Shown here: in pieces, positions 6,736 to 55,800 of the stretch | How positions within the stretch are numbered: position 1 is the first letter of the stretch | Layout: each line of letters opens with the position of its first letter | Program-made: the position numbers and the translations under genes | The notes under the pieces: model-generated | What the model was told of the DNA's origin: nothing | What the model saw: only the letters and a program-made list of their open reading frames with translations | Databases searched by the model: none | Assembly (NCBI GenBank): GCA_903813345.2 | Contig: CAIIXF020000009.1 | Span: 27,256,740-27,320,739, forward strand | Direction: 5' to 3' | DNA from: Owenia fusiformis | Lineage: Eukaryota; Annelida; Polychaeta; Sabellida; Oweniidae | DNA: 64,000 nucleotides

Positions 6736-6930
6736 CTCATGTAACAATTCCATAACATATAAGTTCATCGTCTGCAGAAAAATTACATTCTAAAGACTAT
6801 GTCTAGAGTATTTACAGTATTTCCTTTTATGAAGTTGACATTATGAAATTAAGATATACAATACAGAAAGATCAATTATTTATAGTCAACACACTTTTTC
6901 AGAATCAATCCCTGTAGATGTGTCATTATC

Positions 6931-7412
6931 CCTTCGAACAAAGTTCGGAGGGATATAGGGAACTCCTCTGTCCATCCCTCCGTCCATACATACGTCCGTC
7001 TGTCCGTCCGTCTGGTCAATAACTCAAATACCGTTGGCCCGATTTTGTTCATATTTTGTACACATATACCCTATGGGGGTAGAAGTTCTGGTCGAAAGCC
7101 GATTTTCAAAATGGCCACTCATTTAAAAATGGCGGCCATTTTAGTGCCAATTTTACAGTAATTTAGGTGCAATATGTAAAACTGTAATAGCAATATTTTT
7201 TTTTGCTCGAAACTCGAAAAGTAGTGGAGCGATTTTGTTCATATTTGGTATATGTGAATACTATAAGCATGACACACTGTCTAATAACACTTTTGGTAGA
7301 AGGTGGCAATTTTGAAAAATGGCTGCCATTTTTGCTATATACTATGTTTGTAAAAATGCCAGCCATGGCTGTTCGATGGGATTTGCTACGCCTTGGTGTT
7401 GCTGTTGTCTAG
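6931..7412 (+). mobile_element. Interspersed repeat with (TCCG)n tract, copy 1
   Basis: It opens with ttatcccttcgaacaaagtt and a tccgtccgtctgtccgtccg tract, then alternates caaaatggc and tggcggccatttt pieces. It closes with atgggatttgctacgccttgg. The same element in reverse orientation is at 43330-43763, and a short fragment is at 35607-35690. The ORFs inside are by-products of the repeat. Similar short repeats are, to my knowledge, common in bivalve DNA, but I cannot name the family. Confidence 0.6.
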
Positions 7413-35699: not shown

Positions 35700-38600
35700 A
35701 TATGATATGTTCTATGAAAGTACATGTTCGAAAGTATAAACCACAGTCCAAAGTTGACCTCTTCCGCCCACCCACTTTTCTTTCGTAGAAATTTTCCAAA
35801 TTAAATATAAGCCTCATTTCCTATAGATAACTTAACCATGCAATATATCGCCCTGGTAAAATGTCACAGTCATAAATTCTGAAAAAGCGAAATTTCCTAC
35901 AATATTAAATGCCGTCGCAAGAAAAGATGTGGAAAGTGTAACGAAATTTAATTTATGCTATACTTGGTACTATTAGCTAGATCAATTATTTTGAAATTTG
36001 GTAGACGAGTCAATTAGAAAAAAGAAAACATATCTAAAATCTAATTATTATTTGATTAACTTAAATTGCCATTCAGAATGATTTGCGTACTTTTAAACTA
36101 TAATAAAAAATACTCGATATGACATTGAGTCATGAAAAATGTTTCGTATATTTATAACTTCTCCAATTCATCAGATACATGGAATATGTCTCTATAAATA
36201 ATAGATAAAAACGCATGTCTGAGAAAATTTTATTGCTTCGAGTGTGGCGATTTTTTGCGTTCTTCAATACGATCCAGCAATGTGTATATCCCTCCGGTAA
36301 TATTATTATGATGTCGTAAGAGTACCTGTAATCTTGGGAATACTGTAGCCAAAAACAATTATCGGTTTGCTTCAGATGTAAATATTTTGGAGTAGGGTTT
36401 CATGCCCGGGGTTTCATGTCGCGTGACGCCTTTGGTCTACTCTTTATACCATGGGCTTTCAAAGCCCATGTTTATACCAAGACTTCAACATGGCAAATAT
36501 CGCTTTCATATACCCAGAAACAAAAAATAATTATCATAGCTAAACGGAGAACTCGAAGACGAACACTTTAAAATATGAAATAAACCAGCAGGAACGTATA
36601 GCCAGCAAATGTCAAGAGGGTGCGATTTTTGGGTTTGCATCACTGCGAGTCCCAACCGGGGAGGGGGCACGGATGTGCACCCCCAGAAATTTTTAAAACG
36701 TACACTTTATATTCTAAGCATTTCAAACTATAATTTGTAAATGTTATTTCAACAAATCTTAATGAAAATAAAATTAACAGGGGGTTGCGGTTTATGAGAA
36801 AATATGACCACCATGCCATCTTTATTTAAAAATTATTCCTATCGGCCTTTGCCTATGGATAATACTTGCTGTGGATCCTACAATGTAAATCATGTATTTC
36901 ACATATAGCTAGGCAAGGTGTGTCCGATTCCAGCCAATCTGAACACAGTATTTCATATACCTCCAGTGCATTATATCACCTATCAATCACCGCATCCAAG
37001 GTCATCATATTGCTCCTTATATTGACTCTACAGATTGAAATTGATGCTCTGCCAACTTAATCCTTCAAAAATGTTTCATTGAAAATACGTTCTTATAGTG
37101 ATTTCGTATATTTTAAAAACATTAAGCAATGTGTGAAAAGAATATAGCCTTAGCCCAAAATTCAATGAAAAGACCATTCCTTTCAGGGGTTGTTTCCTAA
37201 AATTCACACTTGATCCTGCACATCTCTTGCACATTTGGGAAAGGAACATCTTGATTCTCAAGGTATTAGTGTTATAACCACTTGGAATTCGAAGATAGGA
37301 AAGGAACGCCTTAAAGGAATTTTCATTCCACATTGCATTGAGTACAGGGCTTAAATCCTTATATCATTGAACATGGATTTTTAATCCCCGGTAAACTCTG
37401 ACAGAGTTATTTCGTTTAGTGATTTCTACCATCACGCATGCGCACAAGAAACAACAACAATCCTTGAAAATGGAGTTTGAAAATTTTGTTTTATTTTGCT
37501 GATTATTAGTTTAATTTAAGAAAATCTGAACAAGGTAATGTTATTTTTATATCTTCGCTTATAGTGAGTAGCAAATTGACATAAAATTGAACGATTGAGA
37601 CCTCTGTTTCATACCATTTTCAACCTATGATTTTCAGTGATTTTAAAAAATGACAACTGCCTCGCCTGAAGTGTAGTATGTATCCAACAGACCGAATATA
37701 ATATTCGGTCTGTTATGATTGATATATTTCCTGTGGAAATCTCGGTGATATTTTTTGCACATAAATTTCTCGTTTATTACAAGAATGTTCACCTTGAAAA
37801 TTGGTGAATATGTTGAAGAGATGTTCATCTTAAAGAGACTCTATTGAGACTTCTCTGTGGCATTTTTTCTTTATTCCTTTTTGTTTTGAATTTTTAACAC
37901 CATAACATTAACTAACTACTCAATATGCAACTTTTCACCGCGTAGAATTTTAAAATTTTAAGTTTGAAAATTCCATTTTTATAATGATGCTCAATGGGAA
38001 AAACTACATAATTTGAATTATTTTCAAACGTAGCGGCGCGATTTTGATAAAATTGACAGATATAATAAATATTGGTAAGACAAAATGTTTGATGAAAAAT
38101 GAAGAAAATTGACCGTCCTGGTTACGCAAACTATAGAAAAATCTGAAATAATCATAAAAACCTGTAAAAATAGATTGAAGGGGGTGATATTCATTTTAAT
38201 GTGCCTTTCAGTACTACAGGGTAACCATAATTTTGGTACTGATTTGATTTTTCAATGAAAATCATTTCTATAGTGTATAGTCAGTTTAAATAATACAATT
38301 GGTATATTTCTTTACTGAACAGTGCAATCATTTATTTATTTATCAACAGTAATGCAAACTACATATTATACAGTAAGTAAAATATTAAAATAATTCTATT
38401 AAAATTAAAGCATTGCCAGAATGTGTTGACAGCTGGCAAAAAATTGAAGAATTTGAAGAAAAATAGCCACCCAAAGACACTTACACCTGCTAATTGCCAC
38501 TTTGCAAAGAGTTTATTCAAGCAAGAAAACTATTTGGAAAAACGTAATTTCGGGTTGAACATGGTACCCACCACTCTGGTTACCTTAGCAACCATCTCTC

Positions 38601-39049
38601 AAGAACCAATCAAAATTGAGGTCCCAAAGGACCTTATACACCCTCCATTGGGATCTCCCCATGAGAAAAAATAATTTATCTGATTTTTCAAAATGAGTAT
38701 TCTGCTTTAATTATTACATTTATATGCACACTAGTATCTTGTTGACCTATATTCAGCACTGTATTGATGTATAGGCCACTTATTAGGGTCATAATTCAAT
38801 CATGAAGTGTAGAGGCATATGATTCCAAACCAGGAAGTATTTTTGTGTCTGTCAAAATCCATTTGCATCCTACGCATCCCTACATCTTATCCAAATATGT
38901 TACTACATTATGAAATAAAATAGTATATTCTTTGGTTTTACAAAGTTGTATGATTTTTGATAAGTGTAAAAGTTGTTTTTGGAGCATTTTTCTATAGCCA
39001 TTTTGTAGGGAAAAAATGATGAAAAAATGTACAATCTTTTAATTTTAAG
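35700..39049. other. Intergenic AT-rich DNA with two perfect hairpins
   Basis: No gene is supported; the ORFs at 36866, 37076 and 38423 lack any recognisable domain or splice context. Two clean hairpins occur: catgggcttt / aaagcccatg around one base at 36450-36470, and aacagaccgaatat / atattcggtctgtt around one base at 37686-37714. Confidence 0.45.
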
Positions 39050-39180
39050 TATGACCTGAATCGATTGCAAACTACATATTTGCACATTTGATGAGATAAA
39101 CCATTAGTGCCATATTGTGAAATTATTAAGTTTGCAATCGATTCGGCATACTCGTTAAATAGCGCCCCCGAAGACCCCTT
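39050..39180. repeat. Left terminal inverted repeat with hairpin insertion
   Basis: Compared with the right end, the left end is interrupted between gaatcgat and ggcata. The interruption forms its own inverted repeat, gaatcgattgcaaac (39058-39072) and gtttgcaatcgattc (39130-39144), around a 57-bp loop. This looks like a tiny element inserted into the terminus with duplication of atcgatt. The following ctcgttaaatagcgcccccg and aagacccctt match the right end exactly. Confidence 0.75.
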
Positions 39181-39370
39181 AGAAAAAATACATAAATTAG
39201 GTATAATTTTAATCTAATAAATGAAATCTATTGTCTAAAACATCTAGAAGTATCCATAAAATGCACCTTATTATCTAATTATATAGGAAGACGATGTTCC
39301 TATAGACTAGGAAGAAGACGATGTTCCCTACATTTCGTTATTATAGATTAGGAAGAAGTGTCTTATTATA

Positions 39371-39720
39371 GCTCGTTAAATAGCGCCCCCCGCCATAAAT
39401 CCTATGAGAAAATAACATGGAGGGGCGCTATTTGACGAGTTATATATAGGAAGACGATGATCCCAACTTTTTTTATTATAGACTAGGAAGAAGTGTCTTA
39501 TTATAGCTAGTTAAATAGCGCCCCCCGCCATAAATCCTATGAGAAAATAACATGGAGGGGCGCTATTTGACGAGTTATATATAGGAACACGATGTTCCCT
39601 ACATTTCGTTATTATAGACTAGGAAGAAGTGTCTTATTATAGCTCGTTAATTAGCGCCCCTTCGCCATAAATCCAATGGGGAAATAACATAGAGGGGCGC
39701 TAATTAACGAGTTATATTAT
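39371..39720. repeat. Left subterminal array, ~136-bp units
   Basis: Three units start at 39371, 39506 and 39642. Each unit contains the inverted pair ctcgttaaatagcgcccc ... ggggcgctatttgacgag around a 30-35 bp core (gccataaatcctatgagaaa), then a spacer with gactaggaagaagtgtctta. The same unit, in the same orientation, forms the right-hand array (51508-53040). In the third unit both arms changed together (ttaattagcg and cgctaattaacg), keeping the pairing. Confidence 0.9.
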
Positions 39721-39902
39721 ACACTTATTAAACAAATTTTGTAAAAATTTAAAACAATTTTTTATATTTTTTATTTATTTATTACACACACTACAACGTA
39801 AGATTACATTCTAAAAGGGATTTATTTTTGGGGCCTTATATAAAAAAAAGGGGCAAGGTATTTTTTGGGGGAAAAATAAAAATAAAATATATATATGAAA
39901 AA

Positions 39903-40760
39903 GGGGCGCTATTTAATAGCGCCCCTAACATTAGGATATTAGCATTGAGGGGCGCTATTTAATAGCGCCCCTTACATTAGGATATTAGCATTGAGGGGCA
40001 CTATTTAAAAGCGCCCCTAACATTATGACATTAGCATTGAGGGGCACTATTTAATAGCACCCATCGCTTAATAATATTACATTATAGGGGCATTACTTAA
40101 TAACGCCCCTCACATTATGATATTAGCATTATGGGGCCACTAATGATATATAATAAAACTGAAAAGTAAATACTTAATAGCGCCCCTAACATTAGGATAT
40201 TAGCATTGAGGGGCACTATTTAAAAGCGCCCCTAACATTATGACATTAGCATTGAGGGGCACTATTTAATAGCACCCATCGCTTAATAATATTACATTAT
40301 AGGGGCATTACTTAATAACGCCCCTCACATTATGATATTAGCATTATGGGGCCACTAATGATATATAATAAAACTGAAAAGTAAATACTTAATAGTGCCC
40401 CTTTACATTAAAATATAACATTATAGGGGCACTATTTAATAGCGCCCCTCACATTATAATATAACATTATGGGGCCACTAATTATTAGCGCCTGTTATAT
40501 AATAATATAAAATAAAATTACAAAGTAAATACTAATAGTGATCCTTTGGATAAAATATAACATTATAGGGGCACAACGTTAATAGCGGCACTCACATTTT
40601 AATATGAAATTATTGGGCCACTCCTTAGTAGCGCCTCCTTAATAATAATATATAATAAAATAACAAACTAAATACTTAATAGTGCCCCTGTGCATAAAAT
40701 ATAACATTATAGGGGCACTACTTAATAGCGTCCCTCACATTTCAAATTGTCACTATAGGG
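39903..40760. repeat. 46-bp hairpin array with 215-bp higher-order repeat
   Basis: Units begin at 39903, 39949, 39995, 40041, 40087 and 40133, exactly 46 bp apart. Each carries a palindrome, ideally ggggcgctatt-t-aatagcgcccc, joined by taacattaggatattagcat. A block of about 215 bp (from 39995) is repeated from 40210, and more degenerate copies run to about 40760. The palindrome shares the tagcgcccc core with the element termini. Confidence 0.9.
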
Positions 40761-40853
40761 CCACTACTTAAAATTTTTGTCCAATGCACTTCAGAAATTA
40801 AACTTCTGGGGCCCTTTTTCCTGTCAACAATTCTACATTTACACGTCCTTCAA

Positions 40854-41097
40854 CAGGGGCGGATCTGGGAACCAACAGGGAGGGGGCGCAAATTTCAGGT
40901 CAGAGGAAAATATTAAGGGCCCCTAAAACCAAAAAGGGGCACAAATTTGAGGCCCATTTTCTTCAAAAATTGGCTTGAAATTAAAAAATGAGGCCTTGAA
41001 AGGCCCACTTTTTGGGGCCTTAAAGCCTTATTTGGCCCAATTTTCTTTCCTGGGCCCACCCAAGGGTGAGGGAGGCCGTCCCCCAGATCCGCCAGTG
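40854..41097. mobile_element. Nested hAT-like MITE, 244 bp
   Basis: The inverted ends caggggcggatctggg and cccagatccgccagtg are of the CAGTGGCGGATC type. The interior is a compressed series of ggcccac and gaggcc pieces. It lies inside the giant element. No target duplication is visible. Confidence 0.6.
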
Positions 41098-41292
41098 TTA
41101 AAGTAATCAAACTTCAATCCTGAATCCGTGAAATGAACTAGGCTAACTGCCTATATTTAAAATTGAGCAAATCAGGCAAATTACAAGCGTCAAAATAAGT
41201 GTACGCTTATCTACAGTATTTACTTCTTCAAATTTGTCAAAATATTCATTTCACAAGTAACCACACTTACAAATTACAGTTTATGGCCCTTA

Positions 41293-41496
41293 ATGAGGTG
41301 TCTATTGAAAGCTATTGAACTGATCTGTTTGCCTTATATGCCTTACGTAATCATGTTTTTGTTGGGAACACACCATGCTGGTAAGCATTTGATTTTGTTT
41401 GCTAAAGGAATGGAATTATACACTGAATATATCAAGGCGAAGTTTGAGGAACTAAAACCTGAGAATCAAAATGCAGTATTTAGTCCATGTTTTTAA
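41293..41496 (+). CDS. Small ORF in the giant element, doubtful
   Basis: A 67-residue ORF begins MRCLLKAIELICLPYMPYVI, with a hydrophobic segment at about residues 7-26. A strong donor (ctg|gtaagc at 41379-41380) lies inside it, and aataaa follows at about 41532. It may be a coding exon, a 5' UTR exon of the ORF at 41683, or chance. I recognise no family. Confidence 0.25.
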   Translation: MRCLLKAIELICLPYMPYVIMFLLGTHHAGKHLILFAKGMELYTEYIKAKFEELKPENQNAVFSPCF

Positions 41497-41682
41497 ATCT
41501 TATAACCTTGTAAATTACCTAATTAGCTTTATCAATAAAGTCCTAAAATATACAATTATTTATCAGGTTCAATATTTTTCACGATCGTTCTTTGTTGTGT
41601 TCTAAATACTGAATTGCTTGTGTATGTGGTAAAACAAAGTTACTGAAGTTAGAAAATTATCTGAAGATAGATTATTGATAAA

Positions 41683-42015
41683 ATGCCACCTTCACGTATT
41701 TACGAACTTTGGAAGCTGATTATAGACTTAATAGGGCCTCTGAAGCAATGGCCTCATGGAATGAGAAAGAGATTCTGGACAACTAATCCCTCTCATTGGG
41801 ACAGAATTCTGTTGGGGGCATTTTGCTTCGTTAATGGTGCCGATCCCCATATTGTGACTGAATTCTTTGAGATAATCACCAAAGATCCGGTGAAGACGAA
41901 CCATCTGAGAGATCTGTTGCTCAAATACTTCCCCATCAAAAAATACAAGCTGTACGCGTGGAATGTATCATACCAGAGATATGAATATTTAGATGGAACT
42001 ATAAAACATAGGTGA
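41683..42015 (+). CDS. Unknown accessory protein of the giant Merlin element
   Basis: An uninterrupted 110-residue ORF begins MPPSRIYELWKLIIDLIGPL, with a conserved-looking middle (KRFWTTNPSHWDRILLGAFC) and a basic, Tyr-rich end. A canonical donor (ag|gtgagt) at 42010-42011 and an acceptor (tttttcag) at about 42101 define an intron. Whether or not it is spliced, the frame stops at KHR. AATAAA near 42167 would end the transcript. The composition (Trp, aromatic residues, mixed charge) is that of a real protein. It lies upstream of and in the same direction as the transposase. I recognise no domain. Confidence 0.6.
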   Translation: MPPSRIYELWKLIIDLIGPLKQWPHGMRKRFWTTNPSHWDRILLGAFCFVNGADPHIVTEFFEIITKDPVKTNHLRDLLLKYFPIKKYKLYAWNVSYQRYEYLDGTIKHR

Positions 42016-42221
42016 GTGTCATTAGATACAATCAAAATAACTAATTAATCAATTAATGCGCCATTAATCAATATGCTTCTCAATTATGAATATTTTTCAG
42101 ATGATTTGGAAATCAAACCGTTCGATATAGCTGACATGATGACAGGATGTCCCCCGCATTGATGCCAAATAAAGATTTACAGAATGACAATATCAAAATG
42201 ATAATGAAATCCATAATAAAG

Positions 42222-42549
42222 GTTAATTTTGAAACAACTTGAAAATACTTTAATTTGGTTAATTAATCATATTAATATTTCCGCATTATGTGAGTGTATA
42301 TCTTGGCGGCAAAATGAATTTTTTGGCGGTAAATGTGAGTGGGTTCGCGCTTTTCTTATGTGTTTTCGGCGCATATTCTTCTATTTGGTGTATATAAATT
42401 GCCATTGATTGCTGAAAAGCTAATTTTAAAACAACTTGAAAAAACAATAATTGGGTTGATTAATCATATTAATATTTCCGCATTATGTGAGTGTATATCT
42501 TGGCGGCAAAATTAATTTTTTGGCGGTAAATGTGAGTGTGTTCGAGCTT
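42222..42549. promoter_or_regulatory. Duplicated upstream block before the transposase start
   Basis: Two direct copies about 199 bp apart (about 42222-42350 and 42421-42549) share attaatcatattaatatttc, then cgcattatgtgagtgtatat, then cttggcggcaaaat and tttttggcggtaaatgtgag. The second ends 25 bp before the ATG at 42574. Between them, tatataaa at 42391-42398 is a candidate TATA box. A promoter role is inferred from position only. Confidence 0.4.
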
Positions 42550-42573
42550 TTATTTTTATTATCACATTGAAAC

Positions 42574-45500
42574 ATGCCACGGAAAGGAGAAGTTGGCAAC
42601 TTCAGAAGCAGAAAAACCGAGAGTAAATATATAACAATATGTGATTTTACCAATCCATGGAATTTTTTCCAATTATTTATTGTGGGAACACAACTTGGTA
42701 TATTAGAATGGCTTCAATACAATGGTTTGATTGGCGATGATTTGCCCTGTTGGAGAGAATCATGTGGTGGTTCACTGAAACTACGAAAGAAGAGTTGCAT
42801 AGATGGTTATGCATTCCGTTGTAGAAAAGACAAGAACCATGAGTTTTCCCTGAGGAAGGGAACGATATTTGATAAATCTCACTATCTGGTAGCGGATATT
42901 ATGGTCTTCATAAAGGTAAATATATTTTTATGTACAATTACACAAAAGCATTGCTAAGGTATGAAATCTCGTCTAACAGCCATGGCATCACCATATGAAA
43001 TTTGAACTAAATCCGTGAACTATTAATTAGGTTATAAAAGATTAAGGCCGGGGTGCATGTTGGATATTTTTGCAATTTTAAAACGTAAACCACTGAATAT
43101 TCTAGTATTGAAACATTCTGAAGAATTATGAACCCTCAATTCATAGTCTACGTGCACTAATGCATATTTAGTGCAAGAATGAAAGATGTACATAATGTGT
43201 GGAGTAAGTTATGTTTATGTGAAAAAAGCACATGGTCATGAAATTTCATTAAAGTGCACACTGACCCATGTAAAAAATAAAATACTATATTTGTCACACA
43301 AAATTTGACTTAGCTATTGGCCATATGTAAAACCAGAAAAACGGCAACGCCAAAGCATAGCGAATCCCATCTAACAGAAATGGCTGGCATTTTTGCAAAT
43401 GAATAGCAAATATCATAAAACAACACACCAGAAAGGCCACCATTTTTTAAATGGTTGCTCACTAGCCAAGTTGTCATCAGAAGCAATAATATGCTTTTAA
43501 GTAGCCACCTCTAAATAACACACATAAAAATGGTGGCCATTTTTCAAAATGGCCGACTACTCCCCAAAGTTTTTTAGACAATGTGCCATGCTTAAAGTAT
43601 TCACATATCAAATATGAACAAAATCGCTCAACTACTTTTCGAGTTATAGTAAAACACGTTAAAAGGGCGCCCATTTTTCAAATTTTTTTTCAGACGGACG
43701 GACGTACGGACGGACGGAGGCGTTCCCTATATCCCTCCGAACTTCGTTCGATGGGATAATAAATGTCACAAAGGGCCCCGAGTTATTTGTAGAATGGATT
43801 GGGGGGGGGGGGGGGTCATGCATTTCGCTAATGTTTTTTATATTAAAAACCGGAATACAGTATCATTGACTACAAGTTTACATCATATAATTAAAAAATT
43901 ATTTCTCATTTTAATTGATTATTCATGGATTTACACCCAGGTATTGTTATATTAATAAAATCTACATCATTGCAGAGTTATCTTGATGGAATGAGCCTCT
44001 ACGCATGCGCAATGGCCAGTGGAATGGAGTACAACAAGTGTTCGGTTGAATGGGCAAAGAAAATAAGAGCCGTTTTCATGGAGTATGTCGAGAAGTACGT
44101 CAAGAAAATGAAACTCTCTGGAACGATCGAAATAGACGAATCTCTTTTTGGGCGTATAGCTAAATACCACAAAGGTGATCCCAAAGGCATGAAAATGTGG
44201 ATATTTGGCTTAATTGAGAAACTAGCACCAAAAAGGTAATGCATTTATTTTGATATGTTTTTATCATGATTATAATATTGATATTGTTTATACAATTACA
44301 TTTAATTAGTGCCAAATAAGGGACCATCCCCCCCCCCGCCAATGGATCCGCCAATATGTTTAATGCTATAAAATTTTATAATTACAGACAGATTATAATA
44401 CCAGTATGTAGGAGGAATAGAACTACCCTGGAACCTCTCATTAAGCAGTACGTCGAACTGGGTTCTCAAATATTTAGCGACAGCTGGAAGGCGTATGCCA
44501 GTCTAAACGACGAAGGATACGAGCATTTCACGGTAATAAATATCAATTTATATTCATTATCTATGTATTTTAAGTATCCATAAACTATCGAGCCGTGATA
44601 CTCGTTGTCTCATTGGTCAAATAGATACCACGTGGCTAAAAATATATTGAGGTATTCCATGTAAGTTAAATTTAGATATCTTGTTAATTGTAACATGTAA
44701 CATTATAACATGAATTGTAATGACAGTATGAATAAAATGTCCCTTGGTCTTCTGGTCTTGGATTGTGATATTTATTCTTGAATGGTGGGGGAAAGGGGGT
44801 ATTAGACATTGTTTCTTTTCACGTTAGATCATGGTTTTGGGCTATATGGGGTCTGTTTTTCTTGACTGGTATGCATTTACAGTTTGCTTTTTCTTGCTAA
44901 GTTCCATTACAAGTTTTGGTCCTTTCCCGTTGGCACTAGTGCTTATATATTTGTATTATTTTTTATATTCAGGTAGTTCACAAAACAAACTTTAAAATGA
45001 AATACAAGAACCAAGCGACCGGGGAAACGATTGACGTCCATACCAACACCATTGAAGGACGATGGAAACACGACAAAGACCATTTCAGAAAGATAAATGG
45101 AACAAGTTTATCTAACTTTGAGGGTCACCTAGCAGAAGTTATGTGGCGATCCCATGTACAATGCCTGCATAAGAACAAGTAATTGTCAAGTCATTTAAGA
45201 AAATCTTAAAAAGCATTTCCATGTATAGATAATAAGGCTCATACATTGTATTTAAATTGTAATGGCAAATATTATAAAATTCACCTTATTATCTAATCAT
45301 ATCCACAATTGATATAATTAATCATAATTAAATGCCAATATCTTATTCAGCATTGATCATTATACAGACAATGTCAATATAATGACATTTAAATCAGATT
45401 TAAAATTATATAGATTTCTTATATGGAATTTAAATAGATTTATTATGACCAGAACATTAATTTTGTAAGCATCTAAACACCTGTCTGTCTTGAGTTAGTG

Positions 45501-48500
45501 ATACATGATACAAAACTGATGAATTGTTATTACAGATATCAAGCTTTCTTCGATATCCTTAAGGAGATATACACTACACGAACAAGTTCACCTACGTACA
45601 CATACACCAAGCCATTGTTCAATCACGAAGGATGCTGGGGAATGGTATAAATACTATTATACTAAACATATCACATTAACATTAATTTTTTATAATTATA
45701 AATATTTATGGTTTCTGAGGTATGCTTACAATCAGAGGTATTGATGCTTGTAGATAATGCTTGATCAAAGTTTGAAGTTTGAAGATAACATAAAAAAGTA
45801 AAAATCAAAAATATGATTTACAGCGCTTGCATTAGGTTAGATAATTTGTGAGTCCCAAGGACGGAATTTTTTTTAAAAAGTGTGTCCTTTGAAAAAAAAG
45901 TGTGTCCCCTATTTCTAGTCATATTTTCAGTTTTTGATTTCTTGCCGCGAATTTAAAATGGAAGTAAACGTTAAGTACGGACTGAATAAATGCATGTTCG
46001 TTCATTCGACAATGAATACATTTTATTTCATGAATAACGTAATATTTGTTTCTGAATATGAAAAACTGTGGCGTGTCATGGTTTCAAATCTAAAAGTAAA
46101 CAAAGTTGAAAAAATTTGAGAGAATCATGATTATTTGTAAATATTCAACATGTTGAGCCTTATTCACGATTCAAATAAAGGTGACAGATCATAATTATTT
46201 GTTTTTGTTAGGTATCCTTGTAAACACATTGTAGTATTGACCTAAAAAAATTTTGCGTCCAAAAAACGGAAATATTTTCAATTTTTGCGTCCTCCAAATT
46301 ATTTTTGAGTCCTTAACATGTACGGGACGCCGTTAATGCAAGCCCTGATGATTCACTAGAGATATATTTCACCCTACTGTCAATCAAAATGATGGTATAT
46401 TTCTTACGGGTATTATAACATTTAATATTATTTCAATAAACTCATTTCAGGATGACTTGTCAAAGATAGACACCACCACTATCCACACCATTGAGGATCA
46501 GATGAGAGTAGATGAGGAAGAAGGTGATTATAATTTTCTAAATATAGTGAAGCATTAATTGGATTCAAACATGACTGTCACTTCTTCTATAAACTGTTAA
46601 AAAAGTTCACCCCTATTTGTTAGTCTATACAATACCAGATTATATGAGTAATATGTGATGTAATAGTGGCGGCCCATAAATGAATAAAAAAAAATTTTGC
46701 TGAATATTCGTTATGATTGTAAGATAGATCTCAAATCAGTATTTATATGGAGTGCATTAGGGCTATAAACAAAATGTTTTGAACAGAATGTGATGATTTT
46801 AAAAATATAATTTTTATGCAACATTAAGGTAACTTTACATGTGGTCATATTCATTTATGAATCATTTCATGAACTATATTTAATTAAATACTAGAAATAG
46901 TAATTGAAGCAGATGAGCAGACTGTAATATTGTCCGTGAAAGAACAGGTTGAAAGTGATGAGAGTGAAGATGGTCCTCTATCAGGCATCAGTACCCCTGA
47001 AGGTAAGCATATTGTCAATTTTTATAAAAGTCAATTGTGTGAATATGATCTAAATTGTATTATTGGCCCTGTTTAAGTTATCCTTGATGAGGGAATAATT
47101 TATTTTTTAAATGACACGTTTTAAATTTTTTAAATTCTTAACATTAATTAGCTTTCAAATTAGGCGCCATAATCTAAATTGTAAGATAAATCCTATTTAT
47201 TGATTTTTCAGATGTTTTAAAAAATATCAAAATTCTTAATTTTAGTTGACCCAAGCCTGCATGATCTTCATGGAAGCTTTGATATTGATGATGTGGAGAT
47301 GTCTACAATAGGACCAGTGAAGGGCGAACTGTTTGTAGGCATGAAGGTGCAAGAAGGTCCGGATGATGAGCAGGTCATTCTATTGCTTGAAGGTATAAAT
47401 CTGAAAAAAAAATTAAACAAAACTCAAAAGATACACACACTTGTAATGTTAAAGATTTCAGTATATTACTATATACACTCTCAATAGTTAAAATGTGGAA
47501 TATTGGGCAAATCATATGCAAGCATTATGGTTGTAAAATGTGAAGTTAGAAAATTTATTTTTACTCATTTATCCCTAGTGTTGATGAAAAATAATGTTAA
47601 ATCTCAATAATTCATGTAGAGATATTTGAAAAGGAGGAAATTAAGGTTTAATTATTACAAAATTACTTATTTATGATAACAGTGTATATGCTTTTCATAT
47701 GAGGATTTCAGGTGATTAGCAAACATTCATAGTTTACTTAAGCCCACAAAAATGTACTAACTGACATAATATGAACAGGCCCTTAGCGAGGGGGGGTCAA
47801 GCGAAACTCACTGTGGCCATAATATATTTAAAAATAATAATGCAGTATTTCACCATTCTAAGCACTTTTCCAATGATTTTGTGCAATTTTTGTGCCACTT
47901 TTGTAAAACGTGAACCCCCTATAATTTTTAAAATTTTAGGAGATAAATCACCTGGAAGTAAGGGTCCCATCCACAGCACGCCACGTGTGAATCCAACTAA
48001 CATTGCTGTTAATGCTAACAGGGGCGCACCTACAGAGACACCAATTGCAAGGAACCCACATGCAGCATCAGTGGCTCCTAGTTCATCAGCTGTTCATGAA
48101 AGTATAGGTAAATCGAGCAATATTAAAAAATATTTAAATTTATTGAAGTGTTACAAGGCATTGAAGAGAAAATTACTGGTCATTGGAAATTATTCCATAT
48201 TTCTGATGAACAGTGGGTGGGTTGTGATTATCATATATCATTTGACATAATTAGCAAAGATAGATACTTTCCTTAAGCCCTGATATGGACAAACATTTAC
48301 TAATAGTACAGTTTTTCATATATTGCTTTTGAAATCTCTATAATTTCATTTTTCTTAAGATTTTAAGAGATTTGCCGATTAATAACACACATTTCTAATA
48401 ATTTTAATCATTTAAAACTGTCCTATTGATATAACATTATATTATTTCATTTGCATGTTAAAAAGGTGAAATGTACATATTTATAAATTTTCATTTTAGG

Positions 48501-49241
48501 AGATAAATCACCTGGAAGTAAGGGTACCATCCACAGCACACCAATTGCAAGGAACCCACATGCAGCATCAGTTGCTCCTAGTTCATCAGCTGTTTCTGAA
48601 AGTACAGGTACAGGTCAGTTCTTGTTTTGTCATTTCCTGTTAAGTATCATAGCACCTTAAGTGAATATCAAAAGCAACAATTATCAGGATTATAGCCAAT
48701 ATTTAGCCTAACAATCAATGCTGACTATTATATATTGTTTAAGATATTTCAAATAAGTATGTCCTGTATGTACAGAATGTTGATCCAAACCTCATAAAGC
48801 CACATGTTACTTGAAAATTGCCACACTCCTTTTCCACATTGTGTACACTGATGTTATGCAAAATTTGGGGAAAATGGGATTAATATTACAAAAATAACTT
48901 GTGACTATTCAGGATTGCATCAGCATTCCTAACATAGAGAACAACCTTAAATGCAATATTATAATGATATGGATATATTTAAACATATATTTTTAGAAAC
49001 TCAAAGAAGATACTTCAAAAAAAGAGGCATCATTTGTCCTCGAGGTTGGACATTTCAAGAAAGACAAAACAACATTGTTCCTAATTTAGTTTCAGGGGCC
49101 AGGCCAAAGACGACTGTTAAGAAAACTAAGACACCAAGGCCTAAGAGATCCAGGACAGTGAAAAAAATGGACTCATTTGTTTACGACTTCTCTTCAGATT
49201 CAGATTTTGAAGAAGCAACACCAAGATCACAAAATAAATAA
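42574..49241 (+). CDS. Merlin (IS1595/ISXO2-like) DDE transposase, 11 exons
   Basis: Exons: 42574-42915, 43976-44235, 44388-44532, 44973-45178, 45536-45644, 46451-46523, 46895-47002, 47246-47392, 47940-48107, 48500-48607 (or 48613) and 48997-49241. All junctions are GT/AG and in phase, and the total is about 636 residues without a stop. The N-terminus holds a zinc-ribbon-like set (C59, C64, C83, H89). The catalytic triad fits D168 (in EIDESLFGR), D232 (in FSDSWKAY) and E277 (in HTNTIEGRWK), followed by the typical MWRSHVQ end of the catalytic domain. After about residue 350 comes an acidic, low-complexity extension with a duplicated exon, ending in a basic patch (KKTKTPRPKRSRTVKK) that could be a nuclear signal or DNA contact. 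The transposase would bind the terminal motif and cut the element out. The intact frame suggests recent activity. Confidence 0.88.
43330..43763 (-). mobile_element. (TCCG)n interspersed repeat, copy 2, reversed
   Basis: It is the reverse-orientation match to 6931-7412, with gcatagcgaatcccatctaa at one end, cggacggacgtacggacgga at 43685-43720, and tatccctccgaacttcgttc near the other end. It sits in the first intron of the transposase. A G15 run follows at 43801-43815. Confidence 0.6.
45821..46347. mobile_element. hAT-type MITE, copy 1
   Basis: The inverted ends are cagcgcttgcatta and taatgcaagccctg. It is flanked by an 8-bp target duplication with one mismatch, atgattta (45813-45820) and atgattca (46348-46355), which is diagnostic of hAT. 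It lies in the transposase intron 45645-46450. A nearly identical inverted copy is at 50994-51507. The ORF at 45934 is not a real gene. Confidence 0.8.
47940..48607 (+). repeat. Duplicated exon in the transposase C-terminal extension
   Basis: Exons 47940-48107 and 48500-48607 both begin GDKSPGSKG and end in PIARNPHAASVAPSSSAV. The second lacks the middle 20 residues or so. Their upstream acceptors (ttttagg) and flanks also match, so the duplication included intron sequence. Both keep the same phase, so one can be skipped without a frameshift. Confidence 0.85.
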
Positions 49242-49320
49242 TTCTTTGTAGCCAACAGATAAATTAAGACTCAGAGTGGTTTATTATTATGAAGTGTTAA
49301 TGCAATTGTTTTGAAATATT

Positions 49321-49672
49321 AAGGTCAGGATGCATGATGGGAAATTTTCTGCATTACTCAATTGAGTGACATGTTATTTTTCCCAACATTATCTACATCT
49401 TCCAGATTTGCACAAAGAGTGCACTTATATGCCAAGAAAATAATTGTGCACAAGACTGTTTTGACAAAGTGTATAAAAAACAAGAAAATTCTAGTTTTTT
49501 ATACAATTTACAAAACATCCCTTCTCACAATTCTTTTCTAAGTACATATGTGCACTCTTTGTGCAAAACTGGTAGATGTAGATAATGTGGGGAAGGAGTG
49601 ATTCTTGTTCAAAAAATAACATGTCACTCAATTGAGGAATGCTGAAAATTTCCCAACATGCACCTGGCCTAA
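49321..49672. mobile_element. Foldback MITE with ~135-bp arms
   Basis: The left arm (aaggtcaggatgcatgatgg, then tcaattgagtgacatgttat, then ctacatcttccagatttgca) is matched in reverse by the right arm (gtagatgtagataatgtggg, then ataacatgtcactcaattga, then acatgcacctggcct). A spacer of about 80 bp separates them. It is non-coding and lies just after the transposase stop. A diverged single end (ggccggggtgcatgttgg) near 43047 may be a related fragment. Confidence 0.75.
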
Positions 49673-50993
49673 TGCAAGTGAATATGTATAGATCTACCAT
49701 ATAAATAAAAAAATATACATCCCTACATATAATAATATGTTTTTTTACTTCTTTATTATAACTGAATGCAACCTCAGGCATACAATGCAACCCCTACCAT
49801 ATAGCACTAAATTACAATTTAGAATTGTCCTGTCCTCATCCTCACTGAAGTAAAATTATATTTTTGTGAACACATAACAAATTATATATACTGTTTAAAT
49901 CTTCTAGATTTGCATAAAGAGAATATTTTCCTAAAATTTAAACCTAAAAAAACACCACTTGTAAAAATCAATGTAGGTCTATGTGAAAATACAAGCGAGT
50001 AGGTAAAAATCCCCCAAGGAAAATCCATACTTACTAGATTACCTTAGGCCATTTATTGTTTGCAATGTTATGGTATTTCCAGGGGTACGGTATTTAAGCA
50101 AATAATTTACATACCTGTTAGTTTTGGTAGGTCCCATCAGTTATCAGTTTCCAAGATGCTACTCGAATATTGTATTACTTGACACCATTTCACTGTGTTG
50201 TTTATCAGTAATAGCTCCTAGGGTTATCTTATATTCCTAATGTAATGAGGCCTATTGTAGTCTAGTTTAAAATCTCTACTATTTACTTTGATGTAAAGCC
50301 ACTCGTGTACATTATAAGTATGCCAATAATAATCTAATGATGAGACAAATCATTATTCCATTCGTCGCTTTGCGCATTTTGAAAGAGCGTGTGCTCATGT
50401 CTGCGGTTACACGTGAAAGGAGGATATCTTTTCTCGTTATATCAATTCATACTATTTGTTTATGCATAAATAGATTGACAGGCGCTGTCTACTCTAATTC
50501 ATCTAGGAGCTTAAATCTTATTGGTTCCACGTCTTTGTAGGCGTGTTCACGCAATTACACTGACCGGAGTGTTTCAGTGGAGAATATGACTTCTAATATC
50601 TATACGCAATAAATACCCCTTTTCGTGATTGTTCCCATGTGATTCTCACATCATTGAAAGTTTCCTTCTTAAATTTATCTCAAAACTTAAAAAAGTAAAT
50701 TTTATTCCTCTCAAATTCATAGATATATCCATGTACAGTTAAATTATTTCGAATTAATCCCTCGTGTCCAATGTATGAATACTTCATATATTTGAGTTTG
50801 CATAAAACACCGTGCATCTAGTCACGTACACCAATTCTTCAAACTGACCACTAGGCCATTAATTTTATATATGTGTTGAACGTCCTACAATGTTTTATTC
50901 CAATATCACTGATGAATAAAATACAGATTTTAATTATATGAACATGTGTGACATGTTATTGCCCAATAGTTTTTATTATAGACTAGGAAGAAG
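49673..50993. other. Non-coding part of the giant element
   Basis: No domain-bearing ORF is seen; the 67-residue ORF at 50337 has no splice or motif support. The first AATAAA after the transposase stop overlaps it (49234-49241), and further tataa-rich sites follow. Confidence 0.4.
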
Positions 50994-51507
50994 CAGGGCT
51001 TGCATTAACGGCGTCCCGTACATGTTAAGGACTCAAAAATAATTTGGAGGACGCAAAAATTGAAAATATTTCCGTTTTTTGGACGCAAAATTTTTTTAGG
51101 TCAATACTACAATGTGTTTACAACGATACCTAACAAAAACAAATAATTATGATCTGTCACCTTTATTTGAATCGTGAATAAGGCTCAACATGTTGAATAT
51201 TTACAAATAATCATGATTCTCTCAAATTTTTTCAACTTTGTTTACTTTTAGATTTGAAACCATTTGAAACTATTCAGAAACAAATATTACGTTATTCATG
51301 AAATAAAATGTATTCATTGTCGAATGAACGAACATGCATTTATTCAGTCCGTACTTAACGTTTACTTCCATTTTAAATTCGCGGCAAGAAATCAAAAACT
51401 GAAAATATGACTAGAAATAGGGGACACACTTTTTTTTCAAAGGACACACTTTTAAAAAAAATTCCGTCCTTGGGACTCACAAATTATCTAACCTAATGCA
51501 AGCGCTG
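50994..51507. mobile_element. hAT-type MITE, copy 2, inverted relative to copy 1
   Basis: It runs from cagggcttgcatta to taatgcaagcgctg and matches 45821-46347 in reverse orientation over its whole length. It was inserted into a 137-bp array unit, since the flanks gactaggaagaag and aagaagtgtctta rejoin to the unit sequence. This shows that the array existed before the MITE arrived. Confidence 0.8.
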
Positions 51508-53040
51508 AAGAAGTGTCTTATTATAGCTCGTTAAATAGCGCCCCTCTGCCATAAATCCTATGAGAAAATAACACGGAGGGGCGCTATTTGACGAGTTATA
51601 TATAGGAAGACGATGATCCCAAATTTTTTATTATAGACTAGGAAGAAGTGTCTTATTATAGCTCGTTAAATAGCGCCCCTCTGCCATAAATCCTATGAGA
51701 AAATAACACGGAGGGGCGCTATTTAACGAGTTATATATAGGAACACGATCTTCCCTAGATTTCGTTATTATAGACTAGGAAGAAGTGTCTTATTATAGCT
51801 CGTTAAATAGCGCCCCTCTGCCATAAATCCTATGAGAAAATAACACGGAGGGGCGCTATTTAACGAGTTATATATAGGAACACGATGTTCCCTAGATTTC
51901 GTTATTATAGACTAGGAAGAAGTGTCTTATTATAGCTCGTTAAATAGCGCCCCTCCGCCATAAATCCTATGAGAAAATAACATGGAGGGGCGCTATTTGA
52001 CGAGTTATATATAGGAACACGATGTTCCCTAGATTTCGTTATTATAGACTAGGAAGAAGTGTCTTATTATAGCTCGTTAAATAGCGCCCCTCCGCCATAA
52101 ATCCTATGAGAAAATAACATGGAGGGGCGCTATTTGACGAGTTATATATAGGAACACGATGTTCCCTAGATTTCGTTATTATAGACTAGGAAGAAGTGTC
52201 TTATTATAGCTCGTTAAATAGCGCCCCTCCGCCATAAATCCTATGAGAAAATAACATGGAGGGGCGCTATTTGACGAGTTATATATAGGAACACGATGTT
52301 CCCTAGATTTCGTTATTATAGATTAGGAAGAAGTGTCTTATTATACCTCGTTATATATATATATAGCCATATATAGGAAGCCGATGATCACAATTTTTTT
52401 TTATTATAGACTAGGAAGAAGTAAACTAGATAATAAGGTGCATTTATATGAAATTATTTTCAATCTATTTATTATACACTAGGAACAAATTGTGCTGGCC
52501 TAATTTTTGGTGATTTTGATATAGGAACACGATGTTCCCTAGATTTCGTTATTATAGACTAGGAAGAAGTGTCTTATTATAGCTCGTTAAATAGCGCCCC
52601 TCCGCCATAAATCCTATGAGAAAATAACATGGAGGGGCGCTATTTGACGAGTTATATATAGGAACACGATGTTCCCTAGATTTCGTTATTATAGACTAGG
52701 AAGAAGTGTCTTATTATAGCTCGTTAAATAGCGCCCCTCCGCCATAAATCCTATGAGAAAATAACATGGAGGGGCGCTATTTGACGAGTTATATATAGGA
52801 ACACGATGTTCCCTAGATTTCGTTATTATAGATTAGGAAGAAGTGTCTTATTATACCTCGTTATATATATATATAGCCATATATAGGAAGCCGATGATCA
52901 CAATTTTTTTTTATTATAGACTAGGAAGAAGTAAACTAGATAATAAGGTGCATTTATATGAAATTATTTTCAATCTATTTATTATACACTAGGAACAAAT
53001 TGTGCTGGCCTAATTTTTGGTGATTTTGGATTTTTTTTAA
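51508..53040. repeat. Right subterminal array, 137-bp units
   Basis: Units begin at 51526, 51661, 51798, 51935, 52072, 52209, 52582 and 52719, with degenerate ones at 52346 and 52856. The spacing is 137 bp (the first is 135). Each has the inverted pair ctcgttaaatagcgcccct ... aggggcgctatttgacgag. A larger block of 510 bp, including the degenerate unit and agtaaactagataataaggt, is duplicated (52346 onward and 52856 onward). Copies are almost identical, so the array is young or homogenised. Confidence 0.93.
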
Positions 53041-53102
53041 ATTTTTTTCCAAGGGGTCTTCGGGGGCGCTATTTAACGAGTATGCCATCGATTCAGGTCA
53101 TA
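53041..53102. repeat. Right terminal inverted repeat of the giant element
   Basis: aaggggtcttcgggggcgct, atttaacgagtatgcc and atcgattcaggtcata are the reverse complement of the left end at 39050-39180 without its hairpin insertion. The match stops at 53102, which sets the outer limit. Confidence 0.8.
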
Positions 53103-55800
53103 GTGTATTTTTGGTATTTGTGTGATAATCAATAGAAACCAATGGCCTCTATTGGGATCTGCTGATATCCTCATGTTAAGTCAATGAAGCACAGCCCCAT
53201 GTAAGGCAATACAACCTTACTAAACTAAATGGCCCCCCTATCTCAGCCTATGTGTGCCCGAGCATTTTAATATTTTCCAAAGAGTTATACCTTATTAGAT
53301 GCAGTGAAGGAGTTAAATCATTGGGATCTGAATAAATCATGCAAAACATGTTTTGTACATATTTCTCATCATTTAGGGTTACCAAGTAGTTTACAAGCTG
53401 ACCTTTGCAAAATATATTTCACTTACTATCCTCATTCGCTATCACCCTATCTAGTTTCTTTCCAAATTGGCCTGGATTGCCTGGTTTATTGGTTTTAGCG
53501 AACCGTCCATTTCGTCGAACCATCATTTTGCTAAGGTTGTTTGTGATGAATATACAATATTCAGTTACATATAACTGTACAGCAACTTCATGCAAGGGAA
53601 GGTAATTGTGTGAGAGCACATAAAGTACATGAAGTATTGACCCACTTGTCTCAGTGAATCTTATAAACAGTGCATAAAGTTTTTTCTATGCAATGATTGG
53701 CTCACAGTTACTTATAGTGTAAGTTATTTTATTTCTATACAGTGTGGAATAGAGTGTATAAACTTTTACAGTTTCAAGCAGGTTTTAGTGTTTTCTGACC
53801 AATGATATATTCAGACTTATTCATTTCACGATTATGTAATACTGACCTACATATCTGTATAGCATATCTTTAAACTAGAAGCAAAAATATTTGTATAAGG
53901 CGGGTACAAGTTGATATAAAATAATGAAATGTTCAGACTCACCAAAACTTCAGGATGTGTTTATAAGTACATCGCGAAATCAATGTCAAGGACGTTTGAG
54001 TTCACGAGATTCAAACGAGATATGCAAATTTTGAACTTTGACAACACATGACCACTTGATTACCTCGGCCTTCTTCATGAATATTTCCGCTCTATTTACA
54101 TGATTTACTATAAATGAAGAAAATTAATCGGGATAATGATAATAAATGACTAGATCTAATAAATTCCCGCACAAATGGAATTTATCAACACGCTTCCGTC
54201 CGCTCCACGTGTTATTTATTTACAAATAGACTGACGTCACTGGCTAAATCTCGTTTATCGTGAGAATTGGCATTGCCAAAATGGCTTGACCTAATCAATG
54301 GCTTCGCTACAAGAAGCGTCTGTACATTTTATGAATATCTTCAGTAAGAGGACAATATACGAAAAAATAATATTGTAAGTACTTTATAAGGTAATCATTT
54401 TATTATTTAACAAACTTATTTGTAACATTTATACAACACCACATTTTACAATAGGTGACTTACAGTCTGAATATTTATTCAGACGAAGGATACAGTCTAG
54501 CCTGAAGTGGCACAGAGGTTACCCTACAGATATCTCTACTGTTCATAGTCAGTATGCATTTATGATTTGGCGCAAGAAGAAAGTTAAGATCATAACTTGG
54601 GCCTAAATCATATATGTAACTGCATAGTGACTGTGCTACTGTTAATATTTTGAAAATTAGTTTGCAACATCAATTCTCTCTCACTGGCTTTTACCTTCTA
54701 AGGCCACTGTATCATGGCCTTCATTCAAAGATAAATTCCTGCATGTATAACGGGTCATGTTGTAATCATAAAATTTGAAATCAAATTTCCGCCATTTTTC
54801 CACATCACAATTTGAATTGCGAGTTTTCATCTTATTAGTCTACCTCACCAAAAATTCCAAAACACAAATGAAGTGATCAATGTATTAGTTCACATCTTCT
54901 GGATCGCTAACTTAGAATTTACAGCCAGTTACTAATGTTAGACATTAAAGACACTTTGTCCATTTTTCGAATATCACCATTTTTTGGAGCCATTTGTTTT
55001 GATTTTAGACGAAGTCATGCAATATCTCATCAAGGAGCCCAGCCGGTCCCATTTAAATTAATGATTTATTTATCTGGCGATTTTAAAACTATTCGATAAA
55101 ATTATGACACGCCGGCCAGCTATTGACAAATTTAATGTCATCCCATATAACTTGATACTGCAAGATGTTTTGGACAGATGATACTTTTTAACCATTTCAA
55201 TCATTTCAATCGATACATCTTGGTAAATGAAATTGTAGTTTCCCTGCTTATACATGTTTCGCCGTTTCAAGCATTTCAATAAATTTGCCTGAATTATTTT
55301 CTCTTTCATTTCAACCATTGCCACCATTTCAAGCAGGTCAGCCGTTTTGCCCCTGTTTCAAGCATTTCCCCTGGCATTGCATACAGGACTAAGTAGATGA
55401 GTAGGATCAATTGTTGACTGTCTAAGTTGCAAATAGTTAAATTCTGTGCTAATGTAACTTCAAATAGGCACATATTTTTGAGGCACGGGTCAAAATAGGA
55501 AGATCAGTATTTCTGTATCTGTCACCTAAAACGCCAATGACCTTAAAAACAAATGATTGATGATGCACCACCTTAAAAAGATGAATAAGCATTGCTTAAA
55601 CCTCATAACATATTCTATTGGATTAATATTTATGGTCTCATGCCTCATTCTTCAAAATTTAAGTTATAGCCTGATTAAACTTGTTGAATAGACAAGATAC
55701 CTAATGCAGATTACCCCTCTGAAATATAAATTCATTGATATGGCAGTCACACATGACAAATAGAATATTTTGAAATTGATAGAAAAAATATATTAACAGA
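53103..55800. other. Intergenic DNA between the giant element and the PTPN13-type gene
   Basis: No coding exon is supported. Degenerate catttcaa repeats lie at 55190-55370, where the minus-strand ORF at 55070 is an artefact. A possible promoter is described separately (54200-54374). Confidence 0.4.
54200..54374 (+). promoter_or_regulatory. Candidate promoter and 5' non-coding exon of the PTPN13-type gene
   Basis: A locally less AT-rich patch contains an E-box (cacgtg, 54206-54211) and a full CRE-like site (tgacgtca, 54232-54239). About 140 bp later there is a strong donor (att|gtaagt, 54375). The first coding exon at 56587 begins with an acceptor and non-coding bases, so an upstream 5' UTR exon must exist. 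This is the best candidate by eye. Confidence 0.3.

What the first reader, a model, noticed from the sequence alone, without database searches (positions are those of the whole stretch)
39050..53102. A 14-kb Merlin-type transposon with an intact multi-exon transposase
Seen: inverted ends at 39050-39180 and 53041-53102, and between them one uninterrupted 11-exon gene with the D168/D232/E277 triad of Merlin/IS1595 transposases. Known: described Merlin elements are generally short. An element about 14 kb long, with introns, arrays and a second ORF, would be a giant form of this superfamily. Inference: it is one mobile unit, because array units and TIRs occur only at its two ends.
Basis: partly seen in the sequence, partly recalled or inferred. 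Interest (0 to 1): 0.87.

Follow-up and report, generated by a model that had tools for sequence, protein, structure and literature searches.

The report
Fourteen-kilobase two-gene Merlin DNA transposon
A jumping gene of the usually tiny Merlin kind sits here as a 13.9-kb unit with a spliced transposase, a second conserved small gene and arrays built from its own ends, and shorter copies with the same ends elsewhere in the genome show that these ends really move.

Summary
The finding holds, with corrected ends. The element is 39145-53086 (13,942 bp). It starts GGCATACTCG, has 44-bp terminal inverted repeats (43/44) and a perfect 8-bp target duplication, ATCGATTC. The outer "inverted ends" (39050-39144, 53095-53102) are a palindrome in the repeat it jumped into; four of four other copies of that repeat examined are uninterrupted there. 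Three further copies (2.9-3.9 kb) share both termini, each with its own perfect 8-bp duplication; all three lack the transposase. No second full-length copy was found. The predicted 11-exon, 638-aa transposase with D168/D232/E277 is confirmed and matches DDE_Tnp_IS1595 and the IS1595 model. The second ORF is real: 110 aa, directly upstream of the transposase at four loci, under purifying selection. Arrays repeat the 18-bp TIR core (24 sites in the element, none elsewhere in the window). The Merlin sizes I saw in print are 1.4-2.6 kb. I file it as a new variant of Merlin: giant, two-gene, array-ended. Unknowns: what the second protein and the arrays do, and present activity.

The parts
37825..39144 (.). 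Left part of the ~2.1-kb dispersed repeat that is the insertion target (includes palindrome arm 39050-39144)
   Evidence: about 98% identical, continuous across the junction in L005-L008
53095..53873 (.). Right part of the same target repeat (palindrome tail 53095-53102)
   Evidence: full extent in L005-L007
39137..39144 (.). Target site duplication ATCGATTC, left copy
53087..53094 (.). Target site duplication ATCGATTC, right copy
39145..53086 (+). The Merlin element, 13,942 bp, starts GGCATACTCG
39145..39188 (+). Left TIR, 44 bp
   Evidence: (I9, 98%)
53043..53086 (-). Right TIR, 44 bp
   Evidence: (I9)
39314..39717 (+). Left array, 3 units of 135 bp, each with two inverted copies of the 18-bp TIR core
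39902..40771 (+). Left 46/143-bp arrays, TIR-core-derived GGGGCGCTATTTAATAGCGCCCC hairpins; no such array on the right
51508..52867 (+). Right array of 137-bp units: 8 pairs of cores (TRF rows 51507-52357, 6.2 copies, and 52519-52867, 2.5 copies), same orientation as the left array
41683..42015 (+). ORF A, 110 aa plus stop: conserved second gene; its last codon overlaps a splice-donor-like site
42218..42554 (+). Duplicated 140-bp block upstream of the transposase start (42218-42357 and 42415-42554, 91%), with four TTGGCGG motifs
42574..49241 (+). Transposase gene, predicted 11 exons: 42574-42915, 43976-44235, 44388-44532, 44973-45178, 45536-45644, 46451-46523, 46895-47002, 47246-47392, 47940-48107, 48500-48613, 48997-49241; 638 aa
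45821..46347 (-). Nested ~0.5-kb TIR element (hAT-like ends by eye) in intron 5, TSD ATGATTTA/ATGATTCA
50994..51507 (+). Second copy of the same nested element (510/512 aligned bases identical, 17 gap positions), inverted, inside the right array; 6-bp TSD AAGAAG; empty site in copy C11

Best explanation
A giant, two-gene Merlin transposon that moves by cut-and-paste. Shown: the 13,942-bp segment inserted as one unit into a dispersed repeat, making an 8-bp target duplication. It encodes a Merlin/IS1595-type DDE transposase with an intact catalytic triad (exons predicted). The same termini bound three other insertions, which lack the transposase. ORF A is a conserved coding sequence kept next to the transposase. 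Inferred: the 638-aa transposase binds the 18-bp core in the 44-bp TIRs and also the 22 further core sites in the subterminal arrays, as internal or decoy sites that help pair distant ends or restrain movement. The short derivatives were mobilised in trans by it or by close relatives. ORF A supplies an accessory function.
For: TSD and TIR unique in 64 kb, 0 in 20 controls. Empty sites 4 of 4 examined. Three other copies with 24/24 terminal bases and 8/8 TSDs (GAGTTAGC, TTCACCAA, CGACATTG), sharing one deletion junction (window about 41611/50578). Triad and exons; PF12762 E=3.3e-17 and NF033547 77.3 bits over a 75 cut-off. Exons 6-9 match relic C4d at 64-95% aa, and the relic keeps the right TIR 9.0 kb beyond exon 3 (window 8.7 kb). 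ORF A pN 0.15 against pS 0.95 to C4a; 562-746 bp upstream of the transposase at 4 loci. 18-bp core: 24 sites here and 23-26 in each derivative.
Against: Only one full-length copy in the assembly. No transcript data: introns and the exon 5/6 junction are predicted, and the codon-usage test does not single out the right frame for exons 3, 4 and ORF A. Binding to the arrays is untested. Derivatives are only about 80-86% identical to the window element inside, so its own transposase need not have moved them. The C8 relative, which has ORF A (with a frame break) and all five catalytic exons, shows neither the arrays nor recognisable termini. 24 of 31 ORF A loci have no transposase match within 12 kb downstream.
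Confidence: 0.88

Rival explanations
1. An ordinary compact Merlin inflated to 14 kb by later insertions, so that 'giant' is an accident of this copy.
For: At least two nested ~0.5-kb elements (1,041 bp together) lie inside; 43330-43760 matches a dispersed repeat outside the element.
Against: Removing the two recognised insertions leaves about 12.9 kb. C-terminal exons and the distance from exon 3 to the right TIR recur in the C4d relic. ORF A and a long spread of exons recur at C8. Arrays recur in all three derivatives, which are 2.9-3.9 kb even without the genes.
Confidence: 0.1
2. A domesticated host gene derived from Merlin, next to unrelated repeat arrays.
For: Single full-length copy, open frame and introns, as for a host gene.
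Against: Perfect TSD, empty sites in other copies of the target repeat and other insertions with the same ends. It lies in a repeat about 98% identical to its other examined copies, so it is not an old fixed locus.
Confidence: 0.03
3. ORF A is not a separate gene but a 5' exon of the transposase transcript (fusion protein).
For: ORF A's last codon overlaps a donor-like AG|GT: GTGAGT in the window, GTATGT in C4a and C3:4.32 Mb, a weaker GTGTCA in C298 (4 of 6 copies read there). In the window an acceptor at 42606 would join it in frame to the transposase.
Against: C8 and C6 have no such donor and C8 no such acceptor; there ORF A stops one codon later. Splicing to the next acceptor (window 42101; C3 in L047) gives a stop directly after the same arginine, so the protein ends there either way. 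Residues from Met1 of the transposase, which a fusion would skip, are conserved in C8, C4e and C3.
Confidence: 0.1

Closest known systems
Merlin superfamily of eukaryotic DNA transposons (PMC8101967: introduction, section 10 part 1 and section 11 read; original description by Feschotte 2004 not read)
   Different: 13.9 kb against 1.4 kb in Schistosoma mansoni (PMC1636069, passage), a mean of 1,635 bp for three curated consensuses in a mollusc library (PMC10294476, passage) and 2.57 kb for Symbiodinium Sy.m_F1 (PMC8101967); ten predicted introns; a 638-aa protein with a long C-terminal extension; a conserved second gene
Merlin families with tandem repeats in Symbiodinium (Sy.m_F1, Sy.k_F1/F2; PMC8101967, section 11 read)
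   Same: Tandem repeats in the element, differing between copies in the Sy.k families
   Different: Here the array unit carries two inverted copies of the TIR core, and such arrays lie at both ends in the same orientation
IS1595 family of bacterial insertion sequences
   Same: Catalytic domain (NF033547 above its cut-off), 8-bp TSD
   Different: Introns, size, second gene; zinc ribbon not detected
piggyBat (PMC11707139, abstract and outline seen)
   Same: Subterminal sequences that modulate transposition, as a possible analogy for the arrays
   Different: Another superfamily; there the effect was shown by experiment, here only the repeats are seen

Membership tests
Merlin superfamily | DDE_Tnp_IS1595 catalytic domain with D, D, E | tested here: met
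   PF12762 E=3.3e-17 over residues 160-309 (on a 636-aa version of the model); NF033547 77.3 bits, cut-off 75 (first 354 residues); D168, D232, E277
Merlin superfamily | TIR beginning 5'-GG | tested here: met
   GGCATACTCG at both ends of 4 of 4 copies
Merlin superfamily | 8-9-bp target site duplication | tested here: met
   8/8 at 4 of 4 copies; empty sites 4 of 4 examined
Merlin superfamily | TIR length 24-462 bp | tested here: met
   44 bp, 98%
Merlin superfamily | No N-terminal Zn_Tnp_IS1595 domain | tested here: met
   No such Pfam hit for the whole protein or its N-terminal part; a few Cys/His and a GTIF motif there are seen by eye only
Merlin superfamily | Phylogenetic placement among Merlin transposases | not tested
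IS1595 family | A single transposase gene (as described in PMC8101967) | tested here: not met
   ORF A is a second conserved coding sequence; so the element is not filed under IS1595

The most novel reading that the evidence does not exclude
A distinct lineage of two-gene giant Merlin transposons exists: a small partner protein (ORF A) is needed with the transposase, and arrays of TIR-core palindromes act as distributed binding sites that let a DDE transposase pair ends 14 kb apart or hold its own activity down.
Probability: 0.35. Interest if true: 0.75.

Novelty: new variant of a known kind. Interest (0 to 1): 0.62.

Why it matters
Merlin elements are among the shortest DNA transposons in the accounts I saw. 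An element several times longer, with introns, a co-inherited second gene and TIR-core arrays, means that searches for single long ORFs may miss part of this superfamily. It also gives a natural test of what limits transposon length and what subterminal repeats do: the host genome holds one full-length copy, deletion derivatives, diverged relatives and empty sites.

Tried and rejected
I first took the outer 103-bp palindrome for a stand-alone MITE; the four other copies examined share about 98% identical flanks, so it is part of a ~2.1-kb repeat. My notes overstated its count (39): one search lists 36 other places (40 of 849 candidates scored). ORF A as an exon of the transposase: kept only as a rival. 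Lipoxygenase, recoverin and designed-protein hits to ORF A (E 0.095-0.56): chance. ORF A structure model: mean pLDDT 49, not used. Transposase against solved structures: none at E<=0.1. Relatives of transposase or ORF A in viral contigs, and of the transposase in prokaryote genomes: none confirmed. TIR and core patterns in viral contigs, and core in prokaryote genomes: none. Rfam over 38000-54000: none at gathering scores. Termini of the C8 relative: not found; its 40-kb stretch holds 1,000 N. A Merlin length range recalled from memory (search) was not found in print and is not used. Passages seen in PMC2874221, PMC2884549 and PMC9587614 gave no Merlin element length.
Full report
Where it is. 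The window lies at G000:C9:27256740-27320739 in a 498-Mb, 525-contig genome. A FERM_N domain in the window suggests an animal; the species was not identified.

Ends. Aligning the first and last stretches shows a 44-bp inverted repeat, 39145-39188 against 53043-53086 (98%, 43/44), starting GGCATACTCG. It is flanked directly by ATCGATTC on both sides. A scan of the whole window for GG-start inverted ends with an exact 8-bp duplication returned this pair alone, and none in 20 Markov controls. Joining the flanks restores a palindrome with identical 24-bp arms, TATGACCTGAATCGATTGCAAACT...AGTTTGCAATCGATTCAGGTCATA.

Empty sites. The host genome has 36 other listed places with about the palindrome's first 95 bases (40 of 849 candidates scored). 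I examined the four that were fetched. In all four the joined flanks align at about 98% across the junction, with one ATCGATTC. So the element jumped into a ~2.1-kb dispersed repeat, and those copies are paralogous empty sites.

Other copies. The left end was found at three further loci. Fetched in 20-kb stretches, all three have both termini (24/24) and perfect 8-bp duplications: GAGTTAGC (C11, 3,902 bp), TTCACCAA (C1, 3,189 bp) and CGACATTG (C1, 2,932 bp). The longest matched stretches between pairs are 93-99% identical. Relative to the window all share one junction joining about 41611 to 50578, so they lack ORF A and transposase. Inside they are only about 80-86% identical to the window element: they descend from a close relative, not recently from this copy. 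They vary in array length, with 23-26 core sites.

Transposase. The 11-exon model uses GT-AG introns (sites chosen so) and has no stop: 638 aa with D168, D232, E277. Pfam and NCBIfam place residues 160-309 and 112-309 in the IS1595/ISXO2 domain (one search used a version two residues short at the exon 6/7 junction). A codon-usage test trained on host ORFs plus exons 1-5 scores exons 6-11 best in the predicted frame, 6 of 6; but it does not do so for exons 3 and 4, which are in its own training set, nor for ORF A, so it is weak. A relic at C4:30.17 Mb matches exons 6-9 at 64-95% aa, with 81-91% DNA identity over stretches that include introns, and keeps the right TIR (85% over 66 bp) 9.0 kb beyond exon 3. 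Its left end was not found. If intron 4 is retained, a 318-aa protein ends at once, so a short isoform is possible.

Relatives in the host. A search with the catalytic part gave 51 matches (59 of 59 candidates scored) in 29 loci, 16 of them on C4 and 8 on C3. There no match outside the window element exceeds 83% aa; in the fetched relics short pieces reach 87.5% over 48 residues and more over 11-19. So this is the only full-length copy of its family found in this assembly. C8:8.18 Mb has all five catalytic exons at 45-77% aa with the triad residues in place.

ORF A. The 110-aa ORF at 41683-42015 has 45 matches (57 of 57 candidates scored) in 31 loci. At four loci (window, C4:27.54, C8:8.18, C3:4.32 Mb) it lies 562-746 bp upstream of the transposase on the same strand; at three more the distance is 5.7-7.6 kb. 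Against C4a, 67 of 93 residues agree with pN 0.150 and pS 0.947; against C8, pN 0.22 and 0.32, pS 0.76 and 0.80. Synonymous sites are saturated, so no ratio is given, but the contrast shows purifying selection as in the transposase (pN 0.10-0.30, pS 0.76-1.09 in six comparisons). Length alone says little: 127 of 9,096 window frames tested (1.4%) are open over 110 codons. An open copy at C6 has 112 aa and stops one codon later than the window's; C8 has a frame break between residues 40 and 42. No Pfam family matched any of 8 members, and no solved structure matched convincingly. Its end is curious: the last arginine codon overlaps a donor-like AG|GT in 4 of 6 copies read, and splicing to the next acceptor gives a stop directly after that arginine in the window and in C3. 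So in those two the protein ends there if spliced so, and in the window also if unspliced. Against the two-gene reading: 24 of 31 ORF A loci have no transposase match within 12 kb downstream, many being fragments.

Arrays. The 18-bp core CTCGTTAAATAGCGCCCC of the TIR occurs 24 times (<=2 mismatches) in the window, all inside the element: 7 left, 17 right. Each 135/137-bp unit holds two inverted copies; the two units folded form hairpins (single-strand DNA z -10.1 and -8.2; one 46-bp unit -4.3). The arrays at the two ends have the same orientation; only the 44-bp TIRs are inverted. A 133-bp array 75% like these lies beside the C4a relative. A diverged family thus also carries one, but the C8 stretch shows none.

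Nested insertions. A ~0.5-kb element with CAGCGCTTGCATTA ends occurs twice, inverted, at 45821-46347 and 50994-51507 (510 of 512 aligned bases identical, 17 gap positions). The second copy sits in the array, and derivative C11 shows the site uninterrupted. Without the pair the element is about 12.9 kb.

Known sizes. In the papers seen, Merlin is 1.4 kb in Schistosoma (PMC1636069, passage), 1,635 bp on average for three curated consensuses of a mollusc library that required an ORF above 300 aa (PMC10294476, passage), and 2.57 kb in one Symbiodinium family with tandem repeats (PMC8101967, introduction, section 10 part 1 and section 11). In a microsporidian the Merlin transposase coding sequences average 880 bp (PMC4202319, passage). 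A review of giant transposons has no occurrence of Merlin (PMC6431247: listing; passages). The listings (30 of 201 papers listed), 48, 53, 73 and 74 named no giant Merlin in titles or starts of abstracts. They cover open-licence papers only, and Repbase was not searchable.

Mechanism. Cut-and-paste movement with 8-bp staggered target cuts follows from the TSDs and from what is established for such transposases. That the arrays are transposase sites is inference from the shared core. piggyBat, where subterminal sequences inhibit transposition (PMC11707139, abstract), is an analogy. The role of ORF A is open.

Noticed in passing
37825-39144 and 53095-53873: A ~2.1-kb dispersed repeat with a 103-bp palindrome, about 98% identical between the copies examined, is the insertion target; its class was not worked out.
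   Followed up: partly
45821-46347 and 50994-51507: Two inverted copies of one ~0.5-kb TIR element landed in the same transposon; target duplications look like 8 bp (7/8) and 6 bp.
   Followed up: partly
42303, 42323, 42500, 42520; C8 stretch (L023-L026 joined) 15733-15832: TTGGCGG motifs (E2F-like, recalled) occur four times in a duplicated block before the transposase, of six in the 64-kb window; the C8 relative has a 20-bp tandem repeat containing TTTGGCGC between its first two transposase exons.
   Followed up: no
42011-42015 and 42101; L047: ORF A's last codon overlaps a donor-like site, and the next acceptor gives a stop at the same residue in two diverged copies: perhaps an intron placed right before the stop codon.
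   Followed up: partly
47940-48107 and 48500-48613: Exons 9 and 10 look like a recent in-frame duplication (95-96% over the matching parts).
   Followed up: no
G000:C3 0.1-4.3 Mb and C4 27.3-30.2 Mb: Diverged Merlin transposase and ORF A remnants are concentrated in two chromosome regions, perhaps heterochromatic.
   Followed up: no
43330-43760: Dispersed repeat with a GGACGGACGG-type stretch, also at 6925-7415 in the window and downstream of the C11 copy.
   Followed up: no
40857-41118: A segment with CAGGGGCGGATC...GATCCGCCAGTG ends (hAT-like by eye) has no clear target duplication; no match to it was listed in the three derivatives.
   Followed up: no
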